Assembly: GCA_947588845.1 (NCBI GenBank) | Contig: CANQAR010000001.1 | Span: forward strand, 1 to 64,000 | Reading direction: 5' to 3' | Source of the DNA: an uncultured Lachnospiraceae bacterium | GTDB lineage: Bacteria; Bacillota; Clostridia; Lachnospirales; Lachnospiraceae | Length of the DNA stretch: 64,000 bases | Shown here: positions 8,580 through 31,402 of the stretch, in pieces | Layout of the letters: the number at the start of each line of letters is the position of its first letter | How positions within the stretch are numbered: position 1 is the first letter of the stretch | Made by a program: the position numbers and the translations under genes | Notes under the pieces: model-generated | What the model was told of the DNA's origin: nothing | What the model saw: only the letters and a program-made list of their open reading frames with translations | Databases searched by the model: none

Positions 8580-9818
8580 TCAGTCCATAAATGTAATCTG
8601 TCGGGATACGCTGAGCGCGAGCGCAATCTCGCTCATCAGAAACAGGATCGATGTACCTCCGTAGCTGATGAACGGCAGCGTAATTCCTGTCGTCGGAATC
8701 AGATTGATGACAACCGCGATATTTAACGTCACCTGCAGCGATATATGTATAAAGACTCCGGAAACGATCAGCGAACCGAGCAGATCCGGCGCGTTCTGGG
8801 CGATAAAAAACAGGCGGTACAGCAGAAACAGAAATAAAAATATCAGAAGAACCGCGCCGAAAATTCCAAGTTCTTCGCATATGATTGAAAAAATCATATC
8901 GTTCTGGGCTTCCGGCAGAGCCCCAAGCTTCTGCGTACTGTTTCCAAGCCCTTTGCCAAGCGCCCCTCCGGAACCGATCGCATAGAGCCCCTGCATAACC
9001 TGATATCCCCCGAGACTCGAATTTTCTTCCGGATTCAGCCACACCTGAATTCTTCGGATACGGAAGCTTTCGCTTCCTCCCGTAGAAATCACATAATATA
9101 ATATTGCAGCTACCACAATGGACAGAACCGCTCCTATGATAATAAACGGCAGAGTCTTTGGATGAACAATAAAAACCAGGATAACGGCAATCCCCGCGAT
9201 GATCAGCGCCGTGCTCAGATTTTCCGTAAAATAATACGTGCAGAATGCCGAAACCGCACCGTATAAAATGACGCGGAAAGGCCCCTTCACACCCCTTATC
9301 TCACGCCCCATATCCACAATCAGCGTAGGCAGAAATAAGATGACAGCCACCTTTGCAAGTTCCGCAGGCTGGAAGGAAATCGGACCGAGATAAATCCAGC
9401 GCCGCGCTCCGTTAATTGTTCTTCCAATGAATTTTGTGGCAACCAGCAGCGCTGTGGAACCGATATACAGAGGCCACGACAGCCTTGACAGAATGTGGTA
9501 ATCAACCTGGGAACCAATCAGGGCAAGAATCAGGGCGCCGCCGCTGATCACTGCCTGCTTGCCGAAATACATCATGTCGTCCCCGTTTTCCCCAAGGCTT
9601 GCCTCGTATGCGCTTGTGCTGTACAGCATGACCAGCCCGAAACAAGTCAGCAGAATGACGATCGCCAGCAGATTATAGTCAAAATAATCTCGTCTTGTGA
9701 CAAAAATAGAACTGAGGATACTTTTTTTCCTGGGAGATCTTTTTACAGAAGTTGCCTTTTTGTGTGCCTGTGTGCTTTTTGCGCGGACAGGACGCAGTTT
9801 ATCCGTACGTGCCGCCAT
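8580..9818 (-). CDS. ftsW: FtsW/RodA/SpoVE-family peptidoglycan glycosyltransferase
   Basis: A SEDS-family integral membrane protein of 412 residues that polymerises lipid II in the septum or spore cortex. A basic cytoplasmic N-terminus (about 45 residues, many Lys/Arg) precedes about ten membrane segments. Signature stretches are NGARRWI, FQPAELAK and the C-terminal LPFISYGGTS. ATG 9818 has GGAGGGG eight bases upstream, better placed than the ATGs at 9824 and 9833; the latter lies in a dispersed repeat. Whether it is FtsW (division) or SpoVE (sporulation) cannot be decided from sequence, and no division genes lie next to it. Confidence 0.9.
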   Translation of the reverse strand: MAARTDKLRPVRAKSTQAHKKATSVKRSPRKKSILSSIFVTRRDYFDYNLLAIVILLTCFGLVMLYSTSAYEASLGENGDDMMYFGKQAVISGGALILALIGSQVDYHILSRLSWPLYIGSTALLVATKFIGRTINGARRWIYLGPISFQPAELAKVAVILFLPTLIVDMGREIRGVKGPFRVILYGAVSAFCTYYFTENLSTALIIAGIAVILVFIVHPKTLPFIIIGAVLSIVVAAILYYVISTGGSESFRIRRIQVWLNPEENSSLGGYQVMQGLYAIGSGGALGKGLGNSTQKLGALPEAQNDMIFSIICEELGIFGAVLLIFLFLFLLYRLFFIAQNAPDLLGSLIVSGVFIHISLQVTLNIAVVINLIPTTGITLPFISYGGTSILFLMSEIALALSVSRQITFMD

Positions 9819-9832
9819 AATCATCCCCTCCA

Positions 9833-9893
9833 TTTATTCCCGCGGGCAATGAGCCGTCACATACCTGCATGTGTCTGGCAAATGCCGCGGGGA
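9833..9893 (+). repeat. Repeat family A, copy A1
   Basis: A 60-base element beginning TTTATTCCCGCGGGCAATGA, with an outer stem CGCGGGCA / TGCCGCG and inner CACAT / ATGTG pairing. Copies also lie at 25117-25180 (minus), 58707-58763 (plus) and, diverged, at 42437-42506 (minus). Here it separates ftsW from the divergent cotJ operon. Confidence 0.8.
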
Positions 9894-10021
9894 GCAAATA
9901 CCCCGGCAGAACACTTTTCCCTCTGCCGTTTTCTGCAGATCTGGTGAAACCTTCAGCGATTACTGACACATCATAACATAATTTCTTTTGTTTTTCCAGT
10001 ACAACCATCATTTTCTTTTTT

Positions 10022-10033
10022 CATACATATAAT
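10022..10033 (+). promoter_or_regulatory. Candidate sporulation promoter (-10) of cotJABC
   Basis: CATACATA followed by TATAAT lies 40 bases before cotJA. CATACA resembles the sigma-E -10 element, and cotJ is sigma-E controlled in Bacillus subtilis. No good sigma-A -35 lies at the right distance, which favours a sporulation sigma factor; the -35 for sigma-E is also not clear. Confidence 0.45.
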
Positions 10034-10072
10034 ATTCTGAAATCAATCATATTTATCAGGAGACTTCCATAT

Positions 10073-10297
10073 ATGCAGGACTCATATCGTTCAGACTGCG
10101 GCTGCCAGAACCAGGCAAACGGCCGCGTCAATGAAATATACGAGCATATGAACATGGCCGATGCTCCCTATGCTATGGCCTATGTCCCGTACCAGCAGTG
10201 GGATCAGATTTATGATCCCTGCAAAGCGCTCCGGGCAGGAACCATCTTCCCGTGCCTTGACAAACCATTCTGCGGAAAAGGAGGTGCCTGCCTGTGA
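10073..10297 (+). CDS. cotJA: Spore coat protein CotJA
   Basis: A 74-residue inner-coat protein. The core YVPYQQWDQIYDPCKAL followed by GTIFPCLDKPF is the CotJA signature. It is first in a cotJA-cotJB-cotJC operon, in which CotJA and CotJC are known to interact and are incorporated into the coat of the developing spore. The ATG follows CAGGAGACTT. Four Cys residues lie in the N- and C-terminal tails, which could allow disulphide cross-linking in the coat (inferred). Confidence 0.92.
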   Translation: MQDSYRSDCGCQNQANGRVNEIYEHMNMADAPYAMAYVPYQQWDQIYDPCKALRAGTIFPCLDKPFCGKGGACL

Positions 10298-13531: not shown

Positions 13532-15064
13532 TCACGGCTGCTCTCCTGTATGCGCTGCTCTGTATTCCGATGGGTACATGCCCGTGTATTTCTTCAGTAC
13601 CTTTGAAAAATAGCTGGGATCCGCGTAACCGGTCATCTGTGCAATATCCTTTGTCATAAGATCGGGACATTTGACCAGAAGCTCCTTTGCTTTTTCAAGG
13701 CGAATCTCCTGGATATAATGATTCGGTGTAATTCCTTTGTAATTTTGAAACAACTTGCTCAGGTAAGACGGAACCAGACCAAATCTGGCCGCGAGATGTT
13801 TGGTGTTGATCGAATCCTTATAATGTTCACGGATATAAGCGTCCAGCCGCTCCATCAATGCTCTTTTGTCCTGTCCCTGGTCCCCAAAGAGCTCCTCCCG
13901 GCACCAGAGGGCGAATTCTTCAAAAATCTCATCCAGACTGCCGGAACGCACGACAATGTCATTGATGCTGTAGCGGACATTCACCGTATCCATACTGTCG
14001 GATACGTTCTGATATGCATCCAGCAGCATCATAATCCGGTCAAGCGTTATCTCAATCTGGTACTGTGTAACTTCCCCCAAACGCAGCTGTCCTTTGATCT
14101 CCGCAAGCACATTGTCAAATTCCCGGAACTGCCTGCTTTTCGCCATATAAAGAACAGATTCTTCTATATGCTCCGGAAGATGAAACACCTGAGCCGTTTC
14201 CCTGAGCTGCCGGATCTCTCCGGTCCGTCCATAGATCCAGCTTTTGTAGACGTCCTTTCTCAATTTCCGTACCGTCTGCGCAAGCTGGTCAATCTCAGTC
14301 AGAGGTTCTCCTGCCACCGCTCCGACAGGATACCGGATATTTCCGTTTTTCATGACTCTCTGGATCAGCGCTTTTATATCCGGTCTTTCATTCTCAAAGA
14401 GAAATAAAATTTCATTTGGATTTCTTCCATAGAAGGAATAAATTTCTTCTGCTTCATTTTCCTCTGTTCTGGCGGCGTCTTCAAGACAGCAGTCTTTCCA
14501 GATTTCCGGATCTGCAGTCTCATCCCCAAACACATGAATACAAAATGCCTTCATAACCAGATAAACAGGATAAAGTTTTCCAATCACAAGCTTTTCGCCA
14601 GTCTGCATGCGGTCTTCCATCAGTTTTGCGATACCGGTCTCTCCATGCAGCGCACGCTCCATAAATACTTTTTTCTGTTTTTTTCTGCCCTGGTAACGGG
14701 AATCACGCAGCTGTTCAAGCAGCTTTTTCAATTCTGCCCGATCCACCGGCTTTACCAGATAATTCTGCACTCCGTACTGCATCGCTTTCTGCGCGTAGGA
14801 AAAATCCTGATATCCGCTGATCACAACACTGACTGTTTTTTTCATATTCGCATGTATATATTCCAGCACTTTCAGTCCGTCGATTACCGGCATATTAATG
14901 TCTGTAAAAACAACATCCACATAATTGTCTTTCAGATAGTCAAGCGCTTCCCGTCCGGTCTTTGCCATCTTTACGACTTCAAAATCCCCGCAGAGATTCA
15001 TGATCATTCTGCTGATTCCCCTCAGCAGAGGAAGTTCGTCTTCAGCCACCAGAACCCTGATCAT
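13532..15064 (-). CDS. YesN-like response regulator with AraC-type DNA-binding domain
   Basis: A 510-residue regulator. The receiver domain (1-120) has the acidic cluster AEDE, phospho-acceptor Asp in VVFTDINMPVIDG and the Lys in NYLVKPVD. A long middle region (about 130-400) has no motif I recognise. The C-terminal 100 residues are an AraC helix-turn-helix pair (LAARFGLVPSYLSKLFQNY and the ITPNHYIQ block). ATG 15064 follows GGAGG and overlaps the end of the kinase gene by 23 bases. It is the output of the YesM-like kinase and probably activates the neighbouring GH20 gene or its own operon (inferred). Confidence 0.92.
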   Translation of the reverse strand: MIRVLVAEDELPLLRGISRMIMNLCGDFEVVKMAKTGREALDYLKDNYVDVVFTDINMPVIDGLKVLEYIHANMKKTVSVVISGYQDFSYAQKAMQYGVQNYLVKPVDRAELKKLLEQLRDSRYQGRKKQKKVFMERALHGETGIAKLMEDRMQTGEKLVIGKLYPVYLVMKAFCIHVFGDETADPEIWKDCCLEDAARTEENEAEEIYSFYGRNPNEILFLFENERPDIKALIQRVMKNGNIRYPVGAVAGEPLTEIDQLAQTVRKLRKDVYKSWIYGRTGEIRQLRETAQVFHLPEHIEESVLYMAKSRQFREFDNVLAEIKGQLRLGEVTQYQIEITLDRIMMLLDAYQNVSDSMDTVNVRYSINDIVVRSGSLDEIFEEFALWCREELFGDQGQDKRALMERLDAYIREHYKDSINTKHLAARFGLVPSYLSKLFQNYKGITPNHYIQEIRLEKAKELLVKCPDLMTKDIAQMTGYADPSYFSKVLKKYTGMYPSEYRAAHTGEQP

Positions 15065-16895: not shown

Positions 16896-18188
16896 TCAGC
16901 CGGAATTGCCCTGATCCTTCCTGTACTGTTCAAAATCATTTTGAAATTTTTCGAGAATATCAGCTCCATCCATATTTTCCCGTGTCGGGGCATCTGTGTA
17001 GTAAATGTACAAAGTACTTTCAAAAAGCGCATTCAGATCCATTACATAATAATTCCATTCGGGAATGACTTTGTCTTTCTCTATGTATTTCTCTTTAATC
17101 TCCGCCAGATAAGACGGAATCCTGCCTCCGTCAATCCCTTCAAATGCCGGAAATCCCGGCCGGTCTTTAAAATACAAAGACGCATACGCAGGAGTGGACC
17201 ACAGCCCGAGCACCTTTTTAACAAGCTCCATATTGCGCGTGTTCCTGTACACCACAAAACCTGGCGAGGACATATTTGCTGTCGCTGTATCCGCTCCGCC
17301 GTTCATGGAGAGAACAAACATTCCAATATCCGCTTCCGGATTCTCTTCCAGAACACTTGCGGCAAAAAAATCTCCGTTGAAGTGCATTGCCGCTTCCCCT
17401 TCTGCAACCGCTTTGATCGTATCGTCATACGAGGCAGTTGAAAAGTTCTGATTTACATAACCTTTTTTGTAGAGTTCGAGATACGTATCGATCACTGCCG
17501 CAAGTTCGGGTCTGTCAGTCCATCTGGCCTCGCCGGATTTCAGGCGGTCTGCGTATTCCTGCGCACCTTCCGTACCAAGAACCCTGGCAAAATTGTCTGA
17601 CATCAGAGCCTGTGCCACCCAGCTGTCTCGTGGCATATAGATCGGCGTGATGCCTGCTTCCCGGATTTTCTCACATACCGCGAGCAGTTCCTCCCAGGTT
17701 TGCGGAACGTCTGCCCCGACCTGCGCAAATACTTCCCGGTTGTAAATAAAACCGTGCACTCCGGGTACGCCAAGAAACGGAAATCCATAAATCTTTCCGT
17801 CCTCTCTGCAGGTCACATGCTCAGGAAAAAGCAGACGGCCGACCCACTCTTCCCCGCTCAGATCCGCAAAATTTTTCGCCGGATCCACAATATCGTAGAC
17901 AGCCGGAATGTTGTAGTCAATCAGATCAGGCGCCTCTCCCGCGTTCAGCTTCATGCGAAGCATGTTCAGGAACTCCATATCGGGTATTACCTGCACATCA
18001 ATTGTAATATTTTCTTCGACTTTCAGTTTTTCAATCATGGCCTGAAGTCCATTGTAATACCGCGACTGCTGGATCATGGCAGTGATCGTATCTGAACCGG
18101 AAAATCCGTAAACTGCCATGCCGAATATCAGCAGAAGAAGACACAGGCATAATATAACTGCTAATTTTTTAACTGACATCTTTTTCAT
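16896..18188 (-). CDS. Extracellular solute-binding protein (family 1), probably a sensor subunit
   Basis: A 430-residue sugar-type ABC solute-binding protein: an N-terminal hydrophobic helix (about 8-28), then the two-lobed fold with ITIDVQVIPD, LNAGEAPDLIDY and AEGEAAMHFNGDFF. It lacks a lipobox Cys at the end of the hydrophobic stretch, so it is probably tethered by the helix itself. No permease or ATPase genes lie nearby; the next genes are the kinase and regulator. A role in presenting ligand to the kinase, rather than in transport, is therefore inferred. The ribosome binding site is weak. A sigma-A promoter lies 50 bases upstream. Confidence 0.88.
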   Translation of the reverse strand: MKKMSVKKLAVILCLCLLLLIFGMAVYGFSGSDTITAMIQQSRYYNGLQAMIEKLKVEENITIDVQVIPDMEFLNMLRMKLNAGEAPDLIDYNIPAVYDIVDPAKNFADLSGEEWVGRLLFPEHVTCREDGKIYGFPFLGVPGVHGFIYNREVFAQVGADVPQTWEELLAVCEKIREAGITPIYMPRDSWVAQALMSDNFARVLGTEGAQEYADRLKSGEARWTDRPELAAVIDTYLELYKKGYVNQNFSTASYDDTIKAVAEGEAAMHFNGDFFAASVLEENPEADIGMFVLSMNGGADTATANMSSPGFVVYRNTRNMELVKKVLGLWSTPAYASLYFKDRPGFPAFEGIDGGRIPSYLAEIKEKYIEKDKVIPEWNYYVMDLNALFESTLYIYYTDAPTRENMDGADILEKFQNDFEQYRKDQGNSG

Positions 18189-23640: not shown

Positions 23641-24660
23641 TTAGAACTGTTTCAGGAACCGCGCGTCGTTCTCGTACAGCAGTCTCATATCATCAATCTC
23701 ATATTTCAGCAGAGCAATACGTTCAAGGCCGACGCCGAACGCAAAGCCCGTGTACTTCTCCGGATCGATCCCGCACATTTCAAATACATGCGGATGCACC
23801 ATGCCGCATCCAAGAATCTCAATCCAGCCTTCTCCCTTACAGAACCGGCAGCCTTTGCCGCCGCACTTGAAGCAGGAGACATCCATCTCCGCACTCGGCT
23901 CTGTGAACGGAAAATGATGCGGACGGAATTTTGTCTTTGTATTTTCACCGAACAATTCTTTTGCGAATACTTCCAGCGTACCTTTCAGATCCGCAAAGGT
24001 AATGTTCTTGTCCACAACCAGTCCCTCGATCTGATGGAAGGACGGGGAATGCGTCGCGTCCACCTCATCCGAGCGGAACACACGGCCCGGAGCGATCACG
24101 CGGATCGGGAGTTTTCCCTTCTCCATAATACGGGCCTGTACCGGAGAAGTCTGCGTGCGCAGCACGATCTCCTTATTGATGTAGAACGTATCCTGCTCAT
24201 CTTTTGCAGGATGATTCGCCGGAATGTTCAGTTTTTCAAAATTGTAAAGATCGTACTCTACCTCCGGTCCTTCGACCACCTCGTATCCCATGCCGATAAA
24301 GATACGCTCCACTTCCTCGCGCGCAATCGTATTCGGATGTCTGTGTCCGACGTGATTCTTCCTGGCCGGAAGCGTCACATCGATAACTTCCGTCTTAAGC
24401 TGAAGCTCAAGAGCCTGTTTCTCAAGTTTTTTCTTTGTGTCCTCGATCGCTTCCTCAATCTGCGCTCTCGCCTCATTGACAAGCTGGCCGAATGCCGGAC
24501 GGTCTTCCGGGGCAATTTCCTTCATGCTCTTTAACAGAGCTGTCAGCTTGCCTTTCTTTCCAAGGAAGCTGACTCTGACTTCGTTCAGCCGGTCGAGCAT
24601 TCCGGCATCCTGAATCTGGGAGAGGGCTTCCTCCCTGATTGCCTGTAATTTCTGCTTCAT
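23641..24660 (-). CDS. pheS: Phenylalanyl-tRNA synthetase alpha subunit
   Basis: A 339-residue class II catalytic subunit. An N-terminal coiled coil (about 1-85) precedes the class II core with motif 2 (PGRVFRSDEVDATHSPSFHQ) and motif 3 (GFAFGVGLERIALLKY). The Cys-rich GGKGCRFCKGEGW segment, a knuckle found in many bacterial PheS, is present. ATG 24660 has AAAGGAG at the right distance; upstream in-frame ATGs lie in the leader. The gene is preceded by a 675-base leader holding a T-box. Confidence 0.97.
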   Translation of the reverse strand: MKQKLQAIREEALSQIQDAGMLDRLNEVRVSFLGKKGKLTALLKSMKEIAPEDRPAFGQLVNEARAQIEEAIEDTKKKLEKQALELQLKTEVIDVTLPARKNHVGHRHPNTIAREEVERIFIGMGYEVVEGPEVEYDLYNFEKLNIPANHPAKDEQDTFYINKEIVLRTQTSPVQARIMEKGKLPIRVIAPGRVFRSDEVDATHSPSFHQIEGLVVDKNITFADLKGTLEVFAKELFGENTKTKFRPHHFPFTEPSAEMDVSCFKCGGKGCRFCKGEGWIEILGCGMVHPHVFEMCGIDPEKYTGFAFGVGLERIALLKYEIDDMRLLYENDARFLKQF

Positions 24661-24921
24661 AATGTCATTCTCCTTTCTGTGCTGCATGGAGACCGGGCTT
24701 TTATAGTAACTCTCATGCCCGCGCTGCGGGCACCTCCATAAATGAAAGTCCACGGACTGTTCCGTGCTTGCGCACTCTCACAGTCCTGCATGTATTCGCA
24801 AATCGCGCTGCTCACGTTCGTTCGCATCGCTGTTTTGCTCATACCTGCTTGTGTCTCTTATACAGAGCCAGTCTGGCAAGCAAGCTTGCCGCCTGCTCTG
24901 TATAGAGACGGACTTTCACAG
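24661..24921 (-). other. Spacer between the T-box terminator and pheS
   Basis: These 261 bases lie after the regulated terminator and before the pheS ribosome binding site. They hold the long hairpin at 24853-24909 and several short palindromes (for example AAAGTCCACGGACT near 24745, GCCCGCGCTGCGGGC near 24717). A 61-codon frame ending at 24657 exists but has no good ribosome binding site and I do not support it as a gene. Confidence 0.6.
24853..24909. repeat. 57-base nested hairpin in the pheS leader
   Basis: Outer arms GTCTCT / AGAGAC and TACAGAGC / GCTCTGTA enclose a second perfect stem GGCAAGC / GCTTGCC. It has no T-tract. It resembles a miniature mobile element remnant or a processing hairpin; I see no second copy in this window. 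Confidence 0.6.
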
Positions 24922-25429: not shown

Positions 25430-28273
25430 TCAGCATTCCAGTTTTGTCTGCAGGAAACGTTCTTCCTCCTCTGTCAGCATGTCGCCCCTTATCATCCTGG
25501 AAGCCACATCCGCGGGTTTTTCCCAGCCTGCCATGTTCGCCGGAGGATAATACAGATCGATATTTCTCACAGCTTCCAGCGCCGCGTCGAGAACGCGCCC
25601 ATCCATTTTATTTACCGGATTTCTCTGGTCACAGATGCAGCCCAGCGCCAGAACGCAGAAAATTAATTCTTCATTGCTTAACTTGCCTCCATAAATAACC
25701 TCGCAGATCTGCTTTACGATTTCGGCCTCGGCCCTGGCAGGAAGCACGCGGAAACCTCCGTCTTTACGCAGTGCCACGCCGACTGCCTGGACGCTGAACT
25801 GAAGATTGCTTCCATAGCCCCGGTTCACATTTTTGATATCCTTTTTGAACTCATCCAGAATCCATGGGATCTGCGTTCTCGTTTTTGCGTGCGTATACAG
25901 ACAGGCCTGAAGATATCTGGGCATATCATGCAGCATGGTCAGTCTGTCAAGCTGTTCTGTATCCGCGCATACGCTCATCGTATAGACCGCCTGAATATTC
26001 GCGAATACCCTGAGGCCGCCGCTCATGGACAGGCCCTGAAGCTCCGCACCGATCTGGCTGATGCAGTGTCTTGCCAGACTTCTTTTTTCCGCGGCGCTCC
26101 AGGATGAGGCTATCTTTCTTGATACGGCAAAAAGGCTCTGCCTTGCCTCTTCTGAAGATACGCCGGATAATGTATCCAGGATTACCTCCGCAAAATCTTC
26201 TTTATTTCCGGCATTGCAGATACTGTTTACGCAGGTGGCGATACGTTTGGCAATCGTACTCCTCTCTGATTTGTTTCTGGTCTTTTGATAATTATTAATA
26301 AGCTGCAGCATATTGTTGACTTCCGCTTTAGGCTGAAGTATGCTGCCGCTTGGCGCTATAAATTTTGTTCTGACTCTTGTCCTTTCTGAATTATCAATCG
26401 CAATATCAACATACCCTTCTTCTATTTTTTCTTTTCCGGCTTCATCCCTGCTCGTCCATGCTTTCATATTTATGACTTTGCTGCTTCCCATATGAACTAT
26501 AAATGCGACATAGGCCCCGTTGCTGTATTTCTTCATAAAAGATATGTTTCCGCTGGCGATGTTTCGATAAGTACCGTCGAGATTCCGGCTCTTAATGGGA
26601 ATCGCGATCATATACTGCCCCGGCTCAATTCTGAATCCGGTCATAACAGAAGAATTGTACGGAAGCTCAGCCCCTGTCGGTATAATTTTATGCACGGCCC
26701 CGTTTTTTACGCCGAGGTACAAACTGTCATTCAGGATATTGCTCCCCCATTGGATTGCCATGGGAATTTCGCGTTCCGGTTTTGCCCGGACGGCGGCTTC
26801 TCTTTCAGGAACGTCTTCCGGACGGCGGTCCCTTTCGGGTTTGTCTCCGGATTCTTCCATATCGCCGAGCATTCTCATATCATCCTGCATTTCTTCATAC
26901 TTATGCAGATAATAATGATATACCGCAGCTCCGCGCGCGACTGACTGATCCGGATCCAGGGCCACCACCGGTTCAAAACCAAAAAATTCCTTCAGCCGGT
27001 CTGTAACCATATAAAATTTTGACATTCCGCCGTTTACAATCACGGCATCCACAATCACGTCCTCCGTATCTAATTTGGCGGAAGCCTTCTGGAGCACGTC
27101 CAGAATCGGGTAGATGATATTTCGGGTATTGCTGATCTCCGTGATTCTTTTGTAATCATCATACACGATTTCCCGGGCCATAAATACCGACAGGATTTCC
27201 TCGATCTCTTCTTTTGAAAAAATATCGTCATAGGAATAACCGATTCCTCCCATATTTCCTCCGGTGGGAATCTCAATCTCATCGTCGTCGTCATCCCAGC
27301 CGGAACTGTAATCTTCCCCGCAGCGCTCATTCAGATCCAGCTTTAAATGCTCCGCGTATACCATAAGCTGAGGCATGATGACATTCTTTTTCTTTCGCAG
27401 CTCAATCACGACATCCGGATACTTTGCGTACTGCTTCAGATATCTTTCATACATGGCCTCCGCAATTTTCCCGTCAAAGTCATCCCCGCCAAGAAGCGTA
27501 TACCGGTTGGTTGCGATCTCGTCCACCTTCAGAACATCTGCGTTGTCATTCCTTCTTTTTATCTCATGCATGGTGATATCCAGAGTCCCGCCTCCCAGAT
27601 CAAATACCAGCACTCTCTTCGGGGAACTCAGGTCGAGAATACGGCCCGATATTTCTCCGTTGTGAATCTGATTGATCAGATCATAGATAACTGCATTGGG
27701 TTCAGACAGCAGAACGGGCCGTTCGCTTCCGTCCGAATTTCTGACCCGGATACCGGCAAGCTCCGCCGCGTCACGGGTTGCCTTGCACATTGCCGAGTCA
27801 AAATTTGCGGGAACCGTGATGACCGCGTCTGTAATTTCACATCGATATACTCTGGAAGCTTCCCTGAGCATATGCCGCAGAGTCCTCGCTGATATCTGTG
27901 CGGGCGTCTTGTCCGGAATATCCGGGGACAGCCCCTCCGCAAGAGGCTTTCCCATCTGGCTCTTGATCGATTTTGCAACGAGATACGGCCGCAGCGGATA
28001 CTGGATTTTCGCGAAATCCCCGACCAGAGGCTCGTAATTTTTTTCCTGCCTGTAATATACGCAGGACGGCAGGGTCGGCTTTTTCATCATCGTCAGCTTT
28101 GCCTCGCCGGAGACCGCGTTATAGATGTCCACGCCCCTGGAAATCTCCACGACCTTGCTTACAATGTCTCCGTTTGGTTTTTCATTGATCGTCGCCAGAA
28201 CGGAGTTCGTGGTTCCGAGATCAATCCCCACACAAAGATCATTATGCTGTTCGTCACCTGAAATTTTTTGCAT
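25430..28273 (-). CDS. Large divergent Hsp70 (DnaK-like) chaperone
   Basis: A 947-residue Hsp70. The ATPase domain has phosphate-1 GIDLGTTNSV (about residue 16), phosphate-2 VFDLGGGTLDITM, and adenosine motif VNGGMSKFYMV followed by DPDQSVARGAAV. It is enlarged by an acidic insertion (DDDDDEIEIP...) and ends near residue 470. A charged linker leads to a beta region (about 520-650) resembling the substrate-binding domain; the canonical DVLLLDV linker and DnaK lid are absent. The last 300 residues are helical and solenoid-like. ATG 28273 overlaps the GrpE-like stop (TGATG) and follows AAAGGAGG, so translation is coupled. It is too divergent to be housekeeping DnaK; client unknown. Confidence 0.88.
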   Translation of the reverse strand: MQKISGDEQHNDLCVGIDLGTTNSVLATINEKPNGDIVSKVVEISRGVDIYNAVSGEAKLTMMKKPTLPSCVYYRQEKNYEPLVGDFAKIQYPLRPYLVAKSIKSQMGKPLAEGLSPDIPDKTPAQISARTLRHMLREASRVYRCEITDAVITVPANFDSAMCKATRDAAELAGIRVRNSDGSERPVLLSEPNAVIYDLINQIHNGEISGRILDLSSPKRVLVFDLGGGTLDITMHEIKRRNDNADVLKVDEIATNRYTLLGGDDFDGKIAEAMYERYLKQYAKYPDVVIELRKKKNVIMPQLMVYAEHLKLDLNERCGEDYSSGWDDDDDEIEIPTGGNMGGIGYSYDDIFSKEEIEEILSVFMAREIVYDDYKRITEISNTRNIIYPILDVLQKASAKLDTEDVIVDAVIVNGGMSKFYMVTDRLKEFFGFEPVVALDPDQSVARGAAVYHYYLHKYEEMQDDMRMLGDMEESGDKPERDRRPEDVPEREAAVRAKPEREIPMAIQWGSNILNDSLYLGVKNGAVHKIIPTGAELPYNSSVMTGFRIEPGQYMIAIPIKSRNLDGTYRNIASGNISFMKKYSNGAYVAFIVHMGSSKVINMKAWTSRDEAGKEKIEEGYVDIAIDNSERTRVRTKFIAPSGSILQPKAEVNNMLQLINNYQKTRNKSERSTIAKRIATCVNSICNAGNKEDFAEVILDTLSGVSSEEARQSLFAVSRKIASSWSAAEKRSLARHCISQIGAELQGLSMSGGLRVFANIQAVYTMSVCADTEQLDRLTMLHDMPRYLQACLYTHAKTRTQIPWILDEFKKDIKNVNRGYGSNLQFSVQAVGVALRKDGGFRVLPARAEAEIVKQICEVIYGGKLSNEELIFCVLALGCICDQRNPVNKMDGRVLDAALEAVRNIDLYYPPANMAGWEKPADVASRMIRGDMLTEEEERFLQTKLEC

Positions 28274-29361
28274 CAATATTCCTCCTTTACTTTAGGTCTT
28301 GATATCTGCAGCTCCTTGTCCTTGTAGATCCAGCCCGGAGAAATTACTTTCACCTTTTTCTTTTCGTCCTCTGAAGCAAAGGGAGTTCCCTCATAATTGC
28401 AGAATTCGACATCAGATGCCGTTACTACCTTGATCGAATCTATTTTCATAATGGGATCAATATGACTGTCACGGACAAACTGGATCAGTTTTCTGACCAT
28501 GACCAGAAGCCCGTTGATCTCTATAGGAAGCTCATAATTATTTTTCCTGAGCATGTCAATGCCCTTTCTCAGTACCAGAAGCTCATCAAGGATACATCCA
28601 TATTTTTCTGAATTAAGCCTGGCAAAAAAGTCTGCCAGCTCCTTTACTTTATTCGCCTCGAGCTGTTCCTCGAACTCGTCCTGCAGATCCTGGAGCAGCG
28701 TGTTGGTTCTCTCCAGGTTGTTTTCAAGCTGTTCGATTCTTTTTACAGCCTGTTCATAGGAGATTTTGTTTTCCGGTTTGCCTGCGGGCTGAGCCTTTTT
28801 GTCTTTGTACTGCGGGAAGCCGTAAGCCTCACTGACGGCGTCGGACATATCAAAAAAGAAATATTTTGCGAGTATGTTCCCCAGCAGATGCAGATTTTCG
28901 GTATCGTCAAACAGGTCGATTTCAGGATATCGCTCATAGATCATGATTGCCGCGAGCCTCTCCTGGGACTTATGCCATTTTCCGCTCTTCGTCGCGGCCG
29001 TCTTTCTTATTTTTTCGAATTTGTCATACGATTCCCTTCTGCCCGCAATCGCGCCCGCAAAGCAGTCCGCCACCTTCTCCGCCCACTGGAACAATTCCTT
29101 TCGCTCGCCCGGATTTGCCATCCTCTGGTTGCGGAAAACCCGAATCACATCATCCGCGTTCAGGTCATATCCATACTTCCAGTTCATCTCTACGGCGCAC
29201 TTTGTAGGGCCCAGATCATACTCATGACATATGAAAGCAAAAATCCGGTTTTCCATCACAAATTCCTCTTTGACCTGCCCGCCGCGTTTTACGTTCCTGA
29301 GCATGGATTCGTGGATATTCTGGATAATTTCTCTGATTTTTTCATTGTTAATGTTTATCAT
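28273..29361 (-). CDS. Probable GrpE-like nucleotide exchange factor with a novel N-terminal domain
   Basis: A 362-residue protein not in a family I can name with certainty. Residues 1-190 are helical and unrecognised. Residues 201-240 form a coiled coil (QAVKRIEQLENNLERTN...), 241-300 a helical segment, and 301-362 a beta-rich tail. The tail's PGWIYKDKELQISRPKVK resembles the beta-wing end of GrpE (GYKLxDRVIRPAxVxV). Long helix, helical bundle, then wing is the GrpE order, and the partner Hsp70 gene is translationally coupled, so nucleotide exchange is inferred. The ribosome binding site is weak (GGGGAAAG). Confidence 0.6.
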   Translation of the reverse strand: MININNEKIREIIQNIHESMLRNVKRGGQVKEEFVMENRIFAFICHEYDLGPTKCAVEMNWKYGYDLNADDVIRVFRNQRMANPGERKELFQWAEKVADCFAGAIAGRRESYDKFEKIRKTAATKSGKWHKSQERLAAIMIYERYPEIDLFDDTENLHLLGNILAKYFFFDMSDAVSEAYGFPQYKDKKAQPAGKPENKISYEQAVKRIEQLENNLERTNTLLQDLQDEFEEQLEANKVKELADFFARLNSEKYGCILDELLVLRKGIDMLRKNNYELPIEINGLLVMVRKLIQFVRDSHIDPIMKIDSIKVVTASDVEFCNYEGTPFASEDEKKKVKVISPGWIYKDKELQISRPKVKEEY

Positions 29362-29385
29362 TCTGCTTTCCCCGCTTTTATTCTG

Positions 29386-30537
29386 TTATAATTTATAAAT
29401 TTCCTTTTCTTCTGCAAAAATAAACTGTGTCCTGCAGTCTCCGTCGGCCATCATTTCCTGCTCGATCGTCCTGTCAAAAACGGAATATTCCTTCCCGCAG
29501 TGTACCAGAACCGCCTGCCGCGGATTCACCGCTTTCAGGAATTTTTTCATATCGGAAAAATCTTCATGCAGTGAAAAATTCACCAGTATGTCCCTGTACA
29601 TTCCCGAAAATCTTTTCCCTGGGTCTGAAGTCACCAGAATATGAAGCTTTTCGGGAATACTGTTTTCGGCCACCTTATTGTACGGATTCATGATCGGAAC
29701 CGACAGCTGCTCCATTTTCCTGACTACTTTCATCAGCGATTCATCTATGTAGACCGGAATCCCATCATAATTCTGTTTATTCAAGGCTTTCAAAAATTCA
29801 ATTCCTTTGCTTAATTGTGGAACGTAACAGGCAATTGACCGATTTGTTTTTTTCGCGGTTTTCAGTACATAATTCACTGTTTTAAATAAAGAACTGGTTT
29901 TTCTGACATAATCCGGATGTTTCGCGTGCAGACCGCACAGAATCACCGTATCGATTTTCAGATTGTCCGGCACCTTGCATCCGCCGGTCAGCAGGGTAGG
30001 CTCCAGAGAGTAATCCCCCGTGTACAGTATTTTTCGCTTCCCTGTGTCAAACAGTATCATCATGGCGCCTGGAATATGGCCGGCCGGAAGAAACGTCGCT
30101 TTGTATGCTCCAAAATCGATCGTCTGCATATAGCTGACACCGGCTATACGTTCCAGCAAATTTCCTACTGCCAGGCGCGATTCCTCATTCCCGGAAGTTC
30201 CGTCAAAATAGATTCTGTCGTACAGCTGATACTCTGTCAGCATTCTTGTAATTTCCGTCATGTAAACAGCTGCATGCCTTGCGCTTCCCATCAGTTTAGT
30301 CAGATACCCCACATGATCCATATGCGCATGGGAAATATAAATCTGACCGATCTGATTCATAGACTGAACAAAAGGACTGGTAAGCAGGGAATGAAAATCC
30401 GGCCCAAATTCCAGACCGTTTTTTTTGCCGGTTCCGGCATCCAGTATCATGTTCCTGTTTTCAATACGCAGAAAATAGCAGCTTGCGCCTACTCTCTGCC
30501 CGCCGCCAAGCGGCATGAAATAAATGTCCGATATCAT
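29386..30537 (-). CDS. Metallo-beta-lactamase fold protein of the beta-CASP type
   Basis: A 383-residue protein. Metal motifs are HAHMDH (70-75), His154 in PAGHIPGA, Asp175 in YTGDYS and His346 in LVHCG. The beta-CASP motif B appears as NFSLHEDFSD (His324), as in CPSF-73 and RNase J-like nucleases, so an RNA or DNA phosphodiesterase is the best guess. Motif A, usually an acidic residue in an (E)STYG.R.H stretch, reads ILCGLHAKHPDY and seems to lack the carboxylate. ATG 30537 has GGAGGGA. It heads the MBL, GrpE-like and Hsp70 set, 34 bases after the yihY-like gene and 24 before the GrpE-like gene. Confidence 0.85.
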   Translation of the reverse strand: MISDIYFMPLGGGQRVGASCYFLRIENRNMILDAGTGKKNGLEFGPDFHSLLTSPFVQSMNQIGQIYISHAHMDHVGYLTKLMGSARHAAVYMTEITRMLTEYQLYDRIYFDGTSGNEESRLAVGNLLERIAGVSYMQTIDFGAYKATFLPAGHIPGAMMILFDTGKRKILYTGDYSLEPTLLTGGCKVPDNLKIDTVILCGLHAKHPDYVRKTSSLFKTVNYVLKTAKKTNRSIACYVPQLSKGIEFLKALNKQNYDGIPVYIDESLMKVVRKMEQLSVPIMNPYNKVAENSIPEKLHILVTSDPGKRFSGMYRDILVNFSLHEDFSDMKKFLKAVNPRQAVLVHCGKEYSVFDRTIEQEMMADGDCRTQFIFAEEKEIYKL

Positions 30538-30571: not shown

Positions 30572-31402
30572 TTAAGCCATAAACGTTTCCGGGTGCGCGA
30601 TATACTGATTGATTTCCGCGCCTGTAAAAAACAGGTACATACAGAAATACAGCCACAGCATGACTACGATCAGCGTCGTAAGCCCGCCGTACACTGCAGT
30701 CATATTGCCTGCATATTCCAGATAAATGGAAAATACATACGAAAAAACGGCCCATGATATGGCGGTAAAGACTGCCCCCGGCAGCTGACTGAGAAAATGC
30801 TCCCGTTTGCCCGGAAGAAACACATAAAGAAGCTCGAATAAAAGCGTAAGTATCGCAAGTGACAGGATCATCTGCAGGGCAAGCGTCCCTTTCGCGTGCC
30901 TGTCAATCAGCGGCACGATACTGCGCAGGTATTCCTGAATCCTGTACCCGAAAACAAGGATGCCAATGGAGATGATCATGACGACCAGCATAATGGCCGT
31001 ATAAAAAACAGCCCAGATACGCACGACAAAGAAATTTCTGGTCTCTTCCAGCTGGTTTACAGAATTCAGTCCGTCGGTCATTCCGACGACCGCTTTGCTT
31101 GAAGTCCAGATGGATGCGGCGGCGGTCCATGACAAAAGCGCATAGGAATGATTAAACAGGCTTCCCACCAGTTCACGGATTGTCTCTGAAATTTCAAAAG
31201 GCGTCACTGTCTCAATTACCTCCAGCACGAGCTCCTGCGTCAGAGGAGTAAACTGAACCACCGTCAGCAGAAGCATCAGAAATGGAAGGAAGCTCAGTAT
31301 CATAAAAAAAGAAGTTGCCGCGGCATGGGCGCGTACATCGTCCCTGCCCATTTTTAAGGTAAAATTCTGTACCCACTGTGCAATTTTTGCGATCGTATCC
31401 AT
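30572..31402 (-). CDS. YihY/BrkB family inner-membrane protein
   Basis: A 276-residue integral membrane protein with six predicted hydrophobic segments. The family blocks AAATSFFMILSFLPFLMLLL near the start and YGGLTTLIVVMLWLYF near the end are present. YihY/BrkB proteins were once called RNase BN, which is wrong; their real function is unsettled. The ATG follows AAGGATTAAGG. It lies 10 bases after the SpoIID-like gene and 34 before the beta-CASP gene, so it is probably in the same transcript. Confidence 0.9.
   Translation of the reverse strand: MDTIAKIAQWVQNFTLKMGRDDVRAHAAATSFFMILSFLPFLMLLLTVVQFTPLTQELVLEVIETVTPFEISETIRELVGSLFNHSYALLSWTAAASIWTSSKAVVGMTDGLNSVNQLEETRNFFVVRIWAVFYTAIMLVVMIISIGILVFGYRIQEYLRSIVPLIDRHAKGTLALQMILSLAILTLLFELLYVFLPGKREHFLSQLPGAVFTAISWAVFSYVFSIYLEYAGNMTAVYGGLTTLIVVMLWLYFCMYLFFTGAEINQYIAHPETFMA

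What the first reader, a model, noticed from the sequence alone, without database searches (positions are those of the whole stretch)
25430..30537. Three-gene set: beta-CASP nuclease-like MBL, GrpE-like factor, giant divergent Hsp70
Seen: tightly packed genes (24-base gap, then a TGATG overlap) encoding a metallo-beta-lactamase with beta-CASP motifs, a protein whose tail resembles the GrpE beta-wing, and a 947-residue Hsp70 with an acidic insertion, no canonical linker and a 300-residue helical C-terminus. Known: dedicated Hsp70/NEF pairs normally serve a specific client. Inference: this is a self-contained chaperone module tied to a nucleic-acid hydrolase, possibly for RNA quality control, stress response or defence. 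I do not recognise it as a described system.
Basis: partly seen in the sequence, partly recalled or inferred. Interest (0 to 1): 0.82.

Follow-up and report, generated by a model that had tools for sequence, protein, structure and literature searches.

The report
Hsp70 machine paired with nuclease-like enzyme
Three neighbouring genes in gut bacteria make an unusual chaperone, a matching exchange factor and an enzyme that looks like an RNA-cutting nuclease; they keep together in the same order across relatives, which suggests an undescribed machine in which a chaperone controls a nuclease.

Summary
On the minus strand lie a beta-CASP-type metallo-beta-lactamase (MBL, 383 aa), a 362-aa protein and a 947-aa Hsp70. 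The middle protein is GrpE-like: the six best rows of a structural second look at its model are all GrpE, over about residues 194-362; Pfam GrpE matches 5 of 48 relatives. The Hsp70 keeps its ATPase residues and has an acidic stretch, a family-specific linker and a HEAT/ARM-like C-terminal solenoid. The set is a unit: MBL lies within 1.5 kb upstream in 62 of 62 and Hsp70 within 0.7 kb downstream in 70 of 70 relatives with room to tell; all three genes share the same 8 of 299 family genomes. Two sister lineages fuse MBL to the GrpE-like protein. It is patchy, under purifying selection, and was not found in phage, plasmid or viral collections. My searches found no paper describing it. Best reading: a dedicated Hsp70/exchange-factor machine that gates an MBL hydrolase, probably on RNA. 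Substrate and gating are inferred. Defence is possible but not supported.

The parts
29386..30537 (-). MBL-fold hydrolase of beta-CASP descent, 383 aa; D33, H70, H72, D74, H75, H154, D175, H324 and H346 invariant in 39 of 39; motif-A acid replaced (C201); stretch from motif 4 to motif B 149 residues against 217 in CPSF73
28273..29361 (-). GrpE-like adaptor, 362 aa (whole gene)
28822..29361 (-). N-terminal all-helical domain of the adaptor (residues 1-180), fold not identified; helices 32-44, 52-63 and 69-78 have HTH-like spacing (inference)
28276..28782 (-). GrpE-like domain of the adaptor (about residues 194-362): long helix, two bundle helices, beta-wing
25430..28273 (-). Divergent Hsp70, 947 aa (whole gene)
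26894..28273 (-). Hsp70 nucleotide-binding domain, about residues 1-460; D18, K104, E191 and T230 (aligned with DnaK catalytic residues, whose roles are recalled) invariant in 42 of 42
27263..27319 (-). Acidic stretch, residues about 319-337, with a net insert of about 9 residues against the genome's own DnaK, in the part of the NBD that forms lobe IIB (subdomain name recalled)
26399..26740 (-). Divergent linker (N)ILNDSLYLG from residue 512, then a predicted beta-sandwich aligned with the DnaK substrate-binding beta domain (fold not confirmed by search)
25436..26332 (-). C-terminal HEAT/ARM-like alpha-solenoid, residues about 648-946
30572..31402 (-). Upstream neighbour BrkB-type membrane protein (34-base gap to the MBL); boundary of the slot, not part of the module
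23641..24753 (-). Downstream neighbour, PheS ORF; other boundary of the slot, not part of the module

Best explanation
The three genes encode one machine. The Hsp70 cycles ATP and, in place of the usual lid, carries a HEAT/ARM-like solenoid that probably docks a fixed partner or client. The middle protein is its dedicated nucleotide exchange factor: its GrpE-like half resets the Hsp70, and its N-terminal helical half holds the MBL (the two are one polypeptide in two sister lineages). The MBL is a zinc hydrolase descended from beta-CASP RNases. I propose that the Hsp70 cycle places or releases the MBL on a ribonucleoprotein or nascent-chain substrate, so that hydrolysis (most likely of RNA) happens only on chaperone-recognised targets. 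Shown by computation: gene unit, GrpE-like and solenoid models, intact ATPase and zinc residues, the fusion. Inferred: physical complex, gating, RNA as substrate.
For: Unit: 62 of 62 and 70 of 70; same 8 of 299 genomes for all three genes. MBL-adaptor fusion in L096 and L097, 51% identical and sisters at 96* in the Hsp70 tree. GrpE-like fold. ATPase residues 42 of 42; zinc ligands and the histidines aligned with beta-CASP motifs B and C 39 of 39. The best PDB sequence matches of the MBL are CPSF73 and Integrator subunit 11, then archaeal CPSF and RNase TTHA0252; the best NCBIfam ones are aCPSF1 and Cas14, far below those families' cut-offs. Solenoid. The genome has its own DnaK and GrpE, so this pair is additional. 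Purifying selection on all three. In one relative (L028) the next gene upstream is an Hsp70 carrying a PIN domain.
Confidence: 0.45

Rival explanations
1. Anti-phage defence system: the Hsp70/adaptor pair senses a phage-induced misfolded protein or RNP and unleashes the MBL nuclease.
For: Patchy distribution (8 of 299 family genomes; 2 of 391 in the class draw, the window's own genome among them); absent from the matching chromosomal slot in the one same-genus genome drawn; a few loci lie near restriction or CRISPR genes (L041 type II methyltransferase, L049 type I specificity subunit, L051 Cas6); Hsp70-HEAT proteins occur in predicted RNA-targeting CoCoNuT systems (PMC11090510, passages read).
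Against: The window's flanks are housekeeping or metabolic genes, as are many flanks in other loci (by eye, whose output was cut, and in the 25 commonest Pfam families). No PADLOC family below E 0.001 for any of the three proteins (best: MBL 0.0022). No copy found on phage or plasmid records with the window's adaptor as query, nor in IMG/VR with its alignment. dN/dS 0.04-0.13. No background control for defence neighbours was run.
Confidence: 0.22
2. The MBL is simply the dedicated client: Hsp70 and adaptor fold or metallate it, as HscA/HscB serve IscU (recalled), and the MBL works on its own afterwards.
For: Strict co-occurrence; dedicated Hsp70 systems with single clients are known (recalled).
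Against: A 947-aa chaperone with a solenoid is costly for one soluble MBL. Canonical beta-CASP MBLs found in the same search have no such partners in the 13-17 kb fetched around them: 3 of 3 genomes, of which 2 have an intact gene.
Confidence: 0.18
3. The MBL no longer acts on nucleic acid but on a small molecule or protein modification, with the chaperone pair sensing stress.
For: Motif-A acid absent in 39 of 39 and shortened cap; weaker matches include non-nucleases such as the AidB lactonase family, 5.6e-06.
Against: Histidines aligned with motifs B and C kept in 39 of 39; every match better than 1e-07 is to a beta-CASP nuclease-type family.
Confidence: 0.13
4. Unrelated genes that happen to be adjacent.
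For: None found.
Against: 62 of 62, 70 of 70, the same 8 of 299 genomes, and a fusion.
Confidence: 0.01

Closest known systems
CoCoNuT type III systems (CnuD / CnuCD), PMC11090510
   Same: Hsp70 NBD/SBD followed by HEAT-like helices, with predicted RNA targeting (passages)
   Different: CoCoNuTs are built on McrB/McrC homologues with HEPN or other nucleases. Their CnuD is said to have degenerate Walker A-like motifs and to hydrolyse ATP poorly at best; here the Hsp70 catalytic residues are intact. No GrpE-like or beta-CASP partner appears in the passages read. No McrB or McrC among the window's flanking proteins that I scanned.
GAP1-N2 GTPase conflict systems with HSP70 and GrpE, PMC7159879
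   Same: Hsp70 plus GrpE encoded together with other genes (passages)
   Different: Those have GTPase/GAP1-N2 and FNIII-DnaJ or TPR proteins; the word 'lactamase' does not occur in that text.
DnaK/GrpE
   Same: ATPase residues; GrpE-like exchange-factor fold
   Different: Extra N-terminal domain on the exchange factor, acidic stretch and charged insert, other linker, solenoid instead of the lid, MBL partner, no J protein in the set.
CPSF73 / Integrator 11 / RNase TTHA0252 / Cas14 beta-CASP nucleases
   Same: MBL motifs and the histidines of beta-CASP motifs B and C
   Different: Motif-A acid absent, shorter cap, constant chaperone partners.

Membership tests
GrpE exchange factor (domain) | Long helix, helical bundle and beta-wing of GrpE | tested here: met
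GrpE exchange factor (domain) | Sequence match to Pfam GrpE | tested here: inconclusive
   5 of 48 relatives match PF01025, best 6.8e-07; the window protein does not at 0.01; an unrelated helical family, DUF2096_N, matches 11 of 48, best 7.9e-04. No GrpE chain in the PDB profile search.
GrpE exchange factor (domain) | Speeds ADP release from a partner Hsp70 | not testable with these tools
   biochemical
Hsp70 | NBD with catalytic Asp, Lys, Glu and Thr | tested here: met
   PF00012 E 8.8e-37; D18, K104, E191, T230 in 42 of 42
Hsp70 | Canonical hydrophobic interdomain linker | tested here: not met
   ILN[D/E]SLYLG stands at or next to the aligned place
Hsp70 | Substrate-binding beta domain fold | tested here: inconclusive
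   beta-sandwich predicted at the right place, but solenoids filled the structure list, the profile found no Hsp70 chain and the Foldseek job was never accepted
Beta-CASP nuclease | MBL motifs 1-4 | tested here: met
   invariant in 39 of 39
Beta-CASP nuclease | Motif A acidic residue | tested here: not met
   C in 35, N in 4 of 39, aligned with CPSF73 E204
Beta-CASP nuclease | Motifs B and C histidines | tested here: met
   H324 and H346 in 39 of 39, aligned with CPSF73 H396 and H418. That second stretch alone is weak (i-Evalue 4); Pfam RMMBL matches there at 6.4e-04, just under its cut-off.
Beta-CASP nuclease | Nuclease activity | not testable with these tools
   biochemical
CoCoNuT | McrB-like GTPase and McrC homologue in the operon | tested here: not met
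   For the window: nine flanking proteins and BrkB, none is McrB or McrC. The flank scans of other loci list only the 25 commonest families, so those loci are not excluded.
Known anti-phage defence protein | Match to a PADLOC model | tested here: not met
   no match below E 0.001 for any of the three; best MBL to PDC-M48B 0.0022

The most novel reading that the evidence does not exclude
An undescribed chaperone-gated nuclease: the Hsp70 ATP cycle, reset by a GrpE-domain adaptor that also carries the enzyme and a helix-turn-helix-like domain, directly switches a beta-CASP-derived MBL on RNA or RNP targets. This would be a regulatory principle that I do not know of for any Hsp70.
Probability: 0.3. 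Interest if true: 0.88.

Novelty: new variant of a known kind. Interest (0 to 1): 0.72.

Why it matters
Hsp70 systems are generalists in the textbook. A dedicated Hsp70/exchange-factor pair locked to a nuclease-type hydrolase, kept together in Bacillota and in genome bins labelled Spirochaetota and Synergistota, would be a direct link between protein quality control and nucleic-acid turnover or immunity. The exchange factor being joined to the enzyme in some lineages makes the coupling testable with three purified proteins.

Tried and rejected
Chance adjacency: rejected. Further beta-CASP MBL relatives in the family (G051, G262, G024) turned out to be canonical enzymes with the motif-A acid and no triad; the one in G024 is broken by stops. 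G022's weak match is a fragment with stops and no module. HrcA/CIRCE heat-shock control: no site in the window with up to 3 mismatches. Mobile carriage: no match on phage or plasmid records with the window's adaptor as the only query (so the second subfamily was not tested there) and none in IMG/VR with alignment A6 (64 stretches matched a pattern, none confirmed); no tRNA gene in the window. Foldseek alone does not recognise the GrpE-like part; the second look does. The PDB profile searches with the adaptor and with the Hsp70 C-terminal part found no GrpE and no Hsp70 chain. Defence island: PADLOC matches at E 1e-10 among 160 of 213 flank ORFs from 30 of 71 loci were scattered (54 and 98 families, only 25 of each shown), and I ran no background control, so the test is inconclusive. 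Prevalence inside Selenomonadaceae could not be measured.
Full report
Observation. A BrkB-type gene lies 34 bases upstream of the MBL, and phenylalanyl-tRNA synthetase genes follow downstream.

MBL. Sequence searches place it with beta-CASP nucleases: aCPSF1 6e-25 and Cas14 2e-18 in NCBIfam (far below those families' own cut-offs), CPSF73 2.6e-21 in the PDB. In 39 aligned relatives every zinc-site residue and the two histidines aligned with motifs B and C are invariant, but the residue aligned with the motif-A glutamate of CPSF73 is Cys in 35 and Asn in 4. The stretch that carries motifs B and C is weak on its own (i-Evalue 4); Pfam RMMBL matches there at 6.4e-04, just under its cut-off. From motif 4 to motif B there are 149 residues, against 217 in CPSF73 (from the alignment). 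Motif names and roles are recalled. In the 299 family genomes the three next-best MBLs (G051, G262, G024) are canonical, carry the motif-A acid and have no triad beside them.

A conserved unit. A scan of genome contigs returned 71 loci, from Lachnospiraceae, Ruminococcus, Selenomonadales and others, and from bins labelled Synergistaceae, Spirochaetaceae/Treponema and Riflebacteria (bin labels may be wrong). Anchored on the GrpE-like match, 62 of 62 loci with at least 1.3 kb upstream have the MBL ending within 1.5 kb upstream on the same strand, and 70 of 70 with at least 1 kb downstream have the Hsp70 starting within 0.7 kb. The profiles used were built from relatives in the same set, some of these loci belong to the genomes, and near relatives are not independent. 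In most loci the genes abut or nearly so; in L079 some 870 bases separate MBL and adaptor ORFs, and L057 has an extra partial adaptor ORF between them. In 299 family genomes the GrpE-like protein (9 matches, one a fragment), the Hsp70 (8 at my cut-off of E 1e-150) and the MBL (11 at my cut-off of E 1e-40, three of them canonical) share exactly the same 8 genomes. Two subfamilies, 20-24% identical in the middle protein and 32-33% in Hsp70, keep the order. In L096 and L097 the MBL and GrpE-like protein are one ORF (778 and 794 aa); the two fusions are 51% identical and sisters in the Hsp70 tree, so I read them as one old fusion, not an assembly error.

Setting. The one same-genus genome drawn lacks the set; it has BrkB and PheS in the same place with an unrelated 429-aa protein with Ig-like domains between them. 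So the set looks like a discrete, exchangeable block, on one comparison. Other flanks differ by lineage; among Selenomonadales loci a shared neighbour cluster recurs in 21 loci (TatC by my recall, not scanned), as expected for descent in place. No match on the phage, plasmid and IMG/VR records (window adaptor or its alignment as query). dN/dS of the three genes between the window and two relatives is 0.04-0.13, with dS 0.67-1.55, so partly saturated; BrkB gives 0.11 against one of them.

Function. The fusion and linkage argue that MBL and GrpE-like protein act together; the GrpE-like fold beside a divergent Hsp70 in a genome with its own DnaK and GrpE argues for a dedicated pair. RNA as substrate is inferred from MBL ancestry and, weakly, from L028, where an Hsp70 with a PIN domain lies next upstream. 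Defence remains possible.

Literature. Searches of the PMC library found no description. 'beta-CASP' and 'GrpE' together occur in no paper held (other spellings would be missed). The nearest, PMC11090510 and PMC7159879, I saw as passages only; the rest as search listings. Most subscription papers and all bioRxiv preprints are outside this library, so 'not in print' is not established.

Noticed in passing
L028:446-2776 (+): A 776-aa Hsp70 with a PIN_4 domain (Pfam 1.5e-15, residues 213-336) ahead of the main Hsp70 match (residues 344-745), next upstream of the triad; the locus also holds two more Hsp70s (8753-10240, 13660-15059) and a 264-aa protein whose tail looks GrpE-like to me by eye. No plasmid record covers 80% of this protein.
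   Followed up: partly
L106 (G152:C23:332234-333523): In a same-genus genome without the triad, a 429-aa protein with Big_2 Ig-like domains fills the slot between BrkB and PheS.
   Followed up: yes
window 24744-24917 (-): Rfam Clostridiales-1 RNA (101.8 bits) just upstream of PheS; an AGGGTGGTACCGCGG stretch nearby looks like a T-box core to me, though no T-box match reached Rfam's gathering score.
   Followed up: no
L041:5969-7581 (+): A type II DNA methyltransferase gene (PADLOC 4.6e-65) and a small gene after it lie downstream of the triad in this locus.
   Followed up: partly
L051:6916-7662 (+): A Cas6-type CRISPR endoribonuclease (PADLOC 2.6e-39) lies upstream of the triad; what looks by eye like a vWA-domain protein lies downstream at 17205-17921.
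   Followed up: partly
L057:1179-2054 and L083:9989-10714: Second or shortened GrpE-like ORFs in two Selenomonadales loci, perhaps duplication or frameshift.
   Followed up: no
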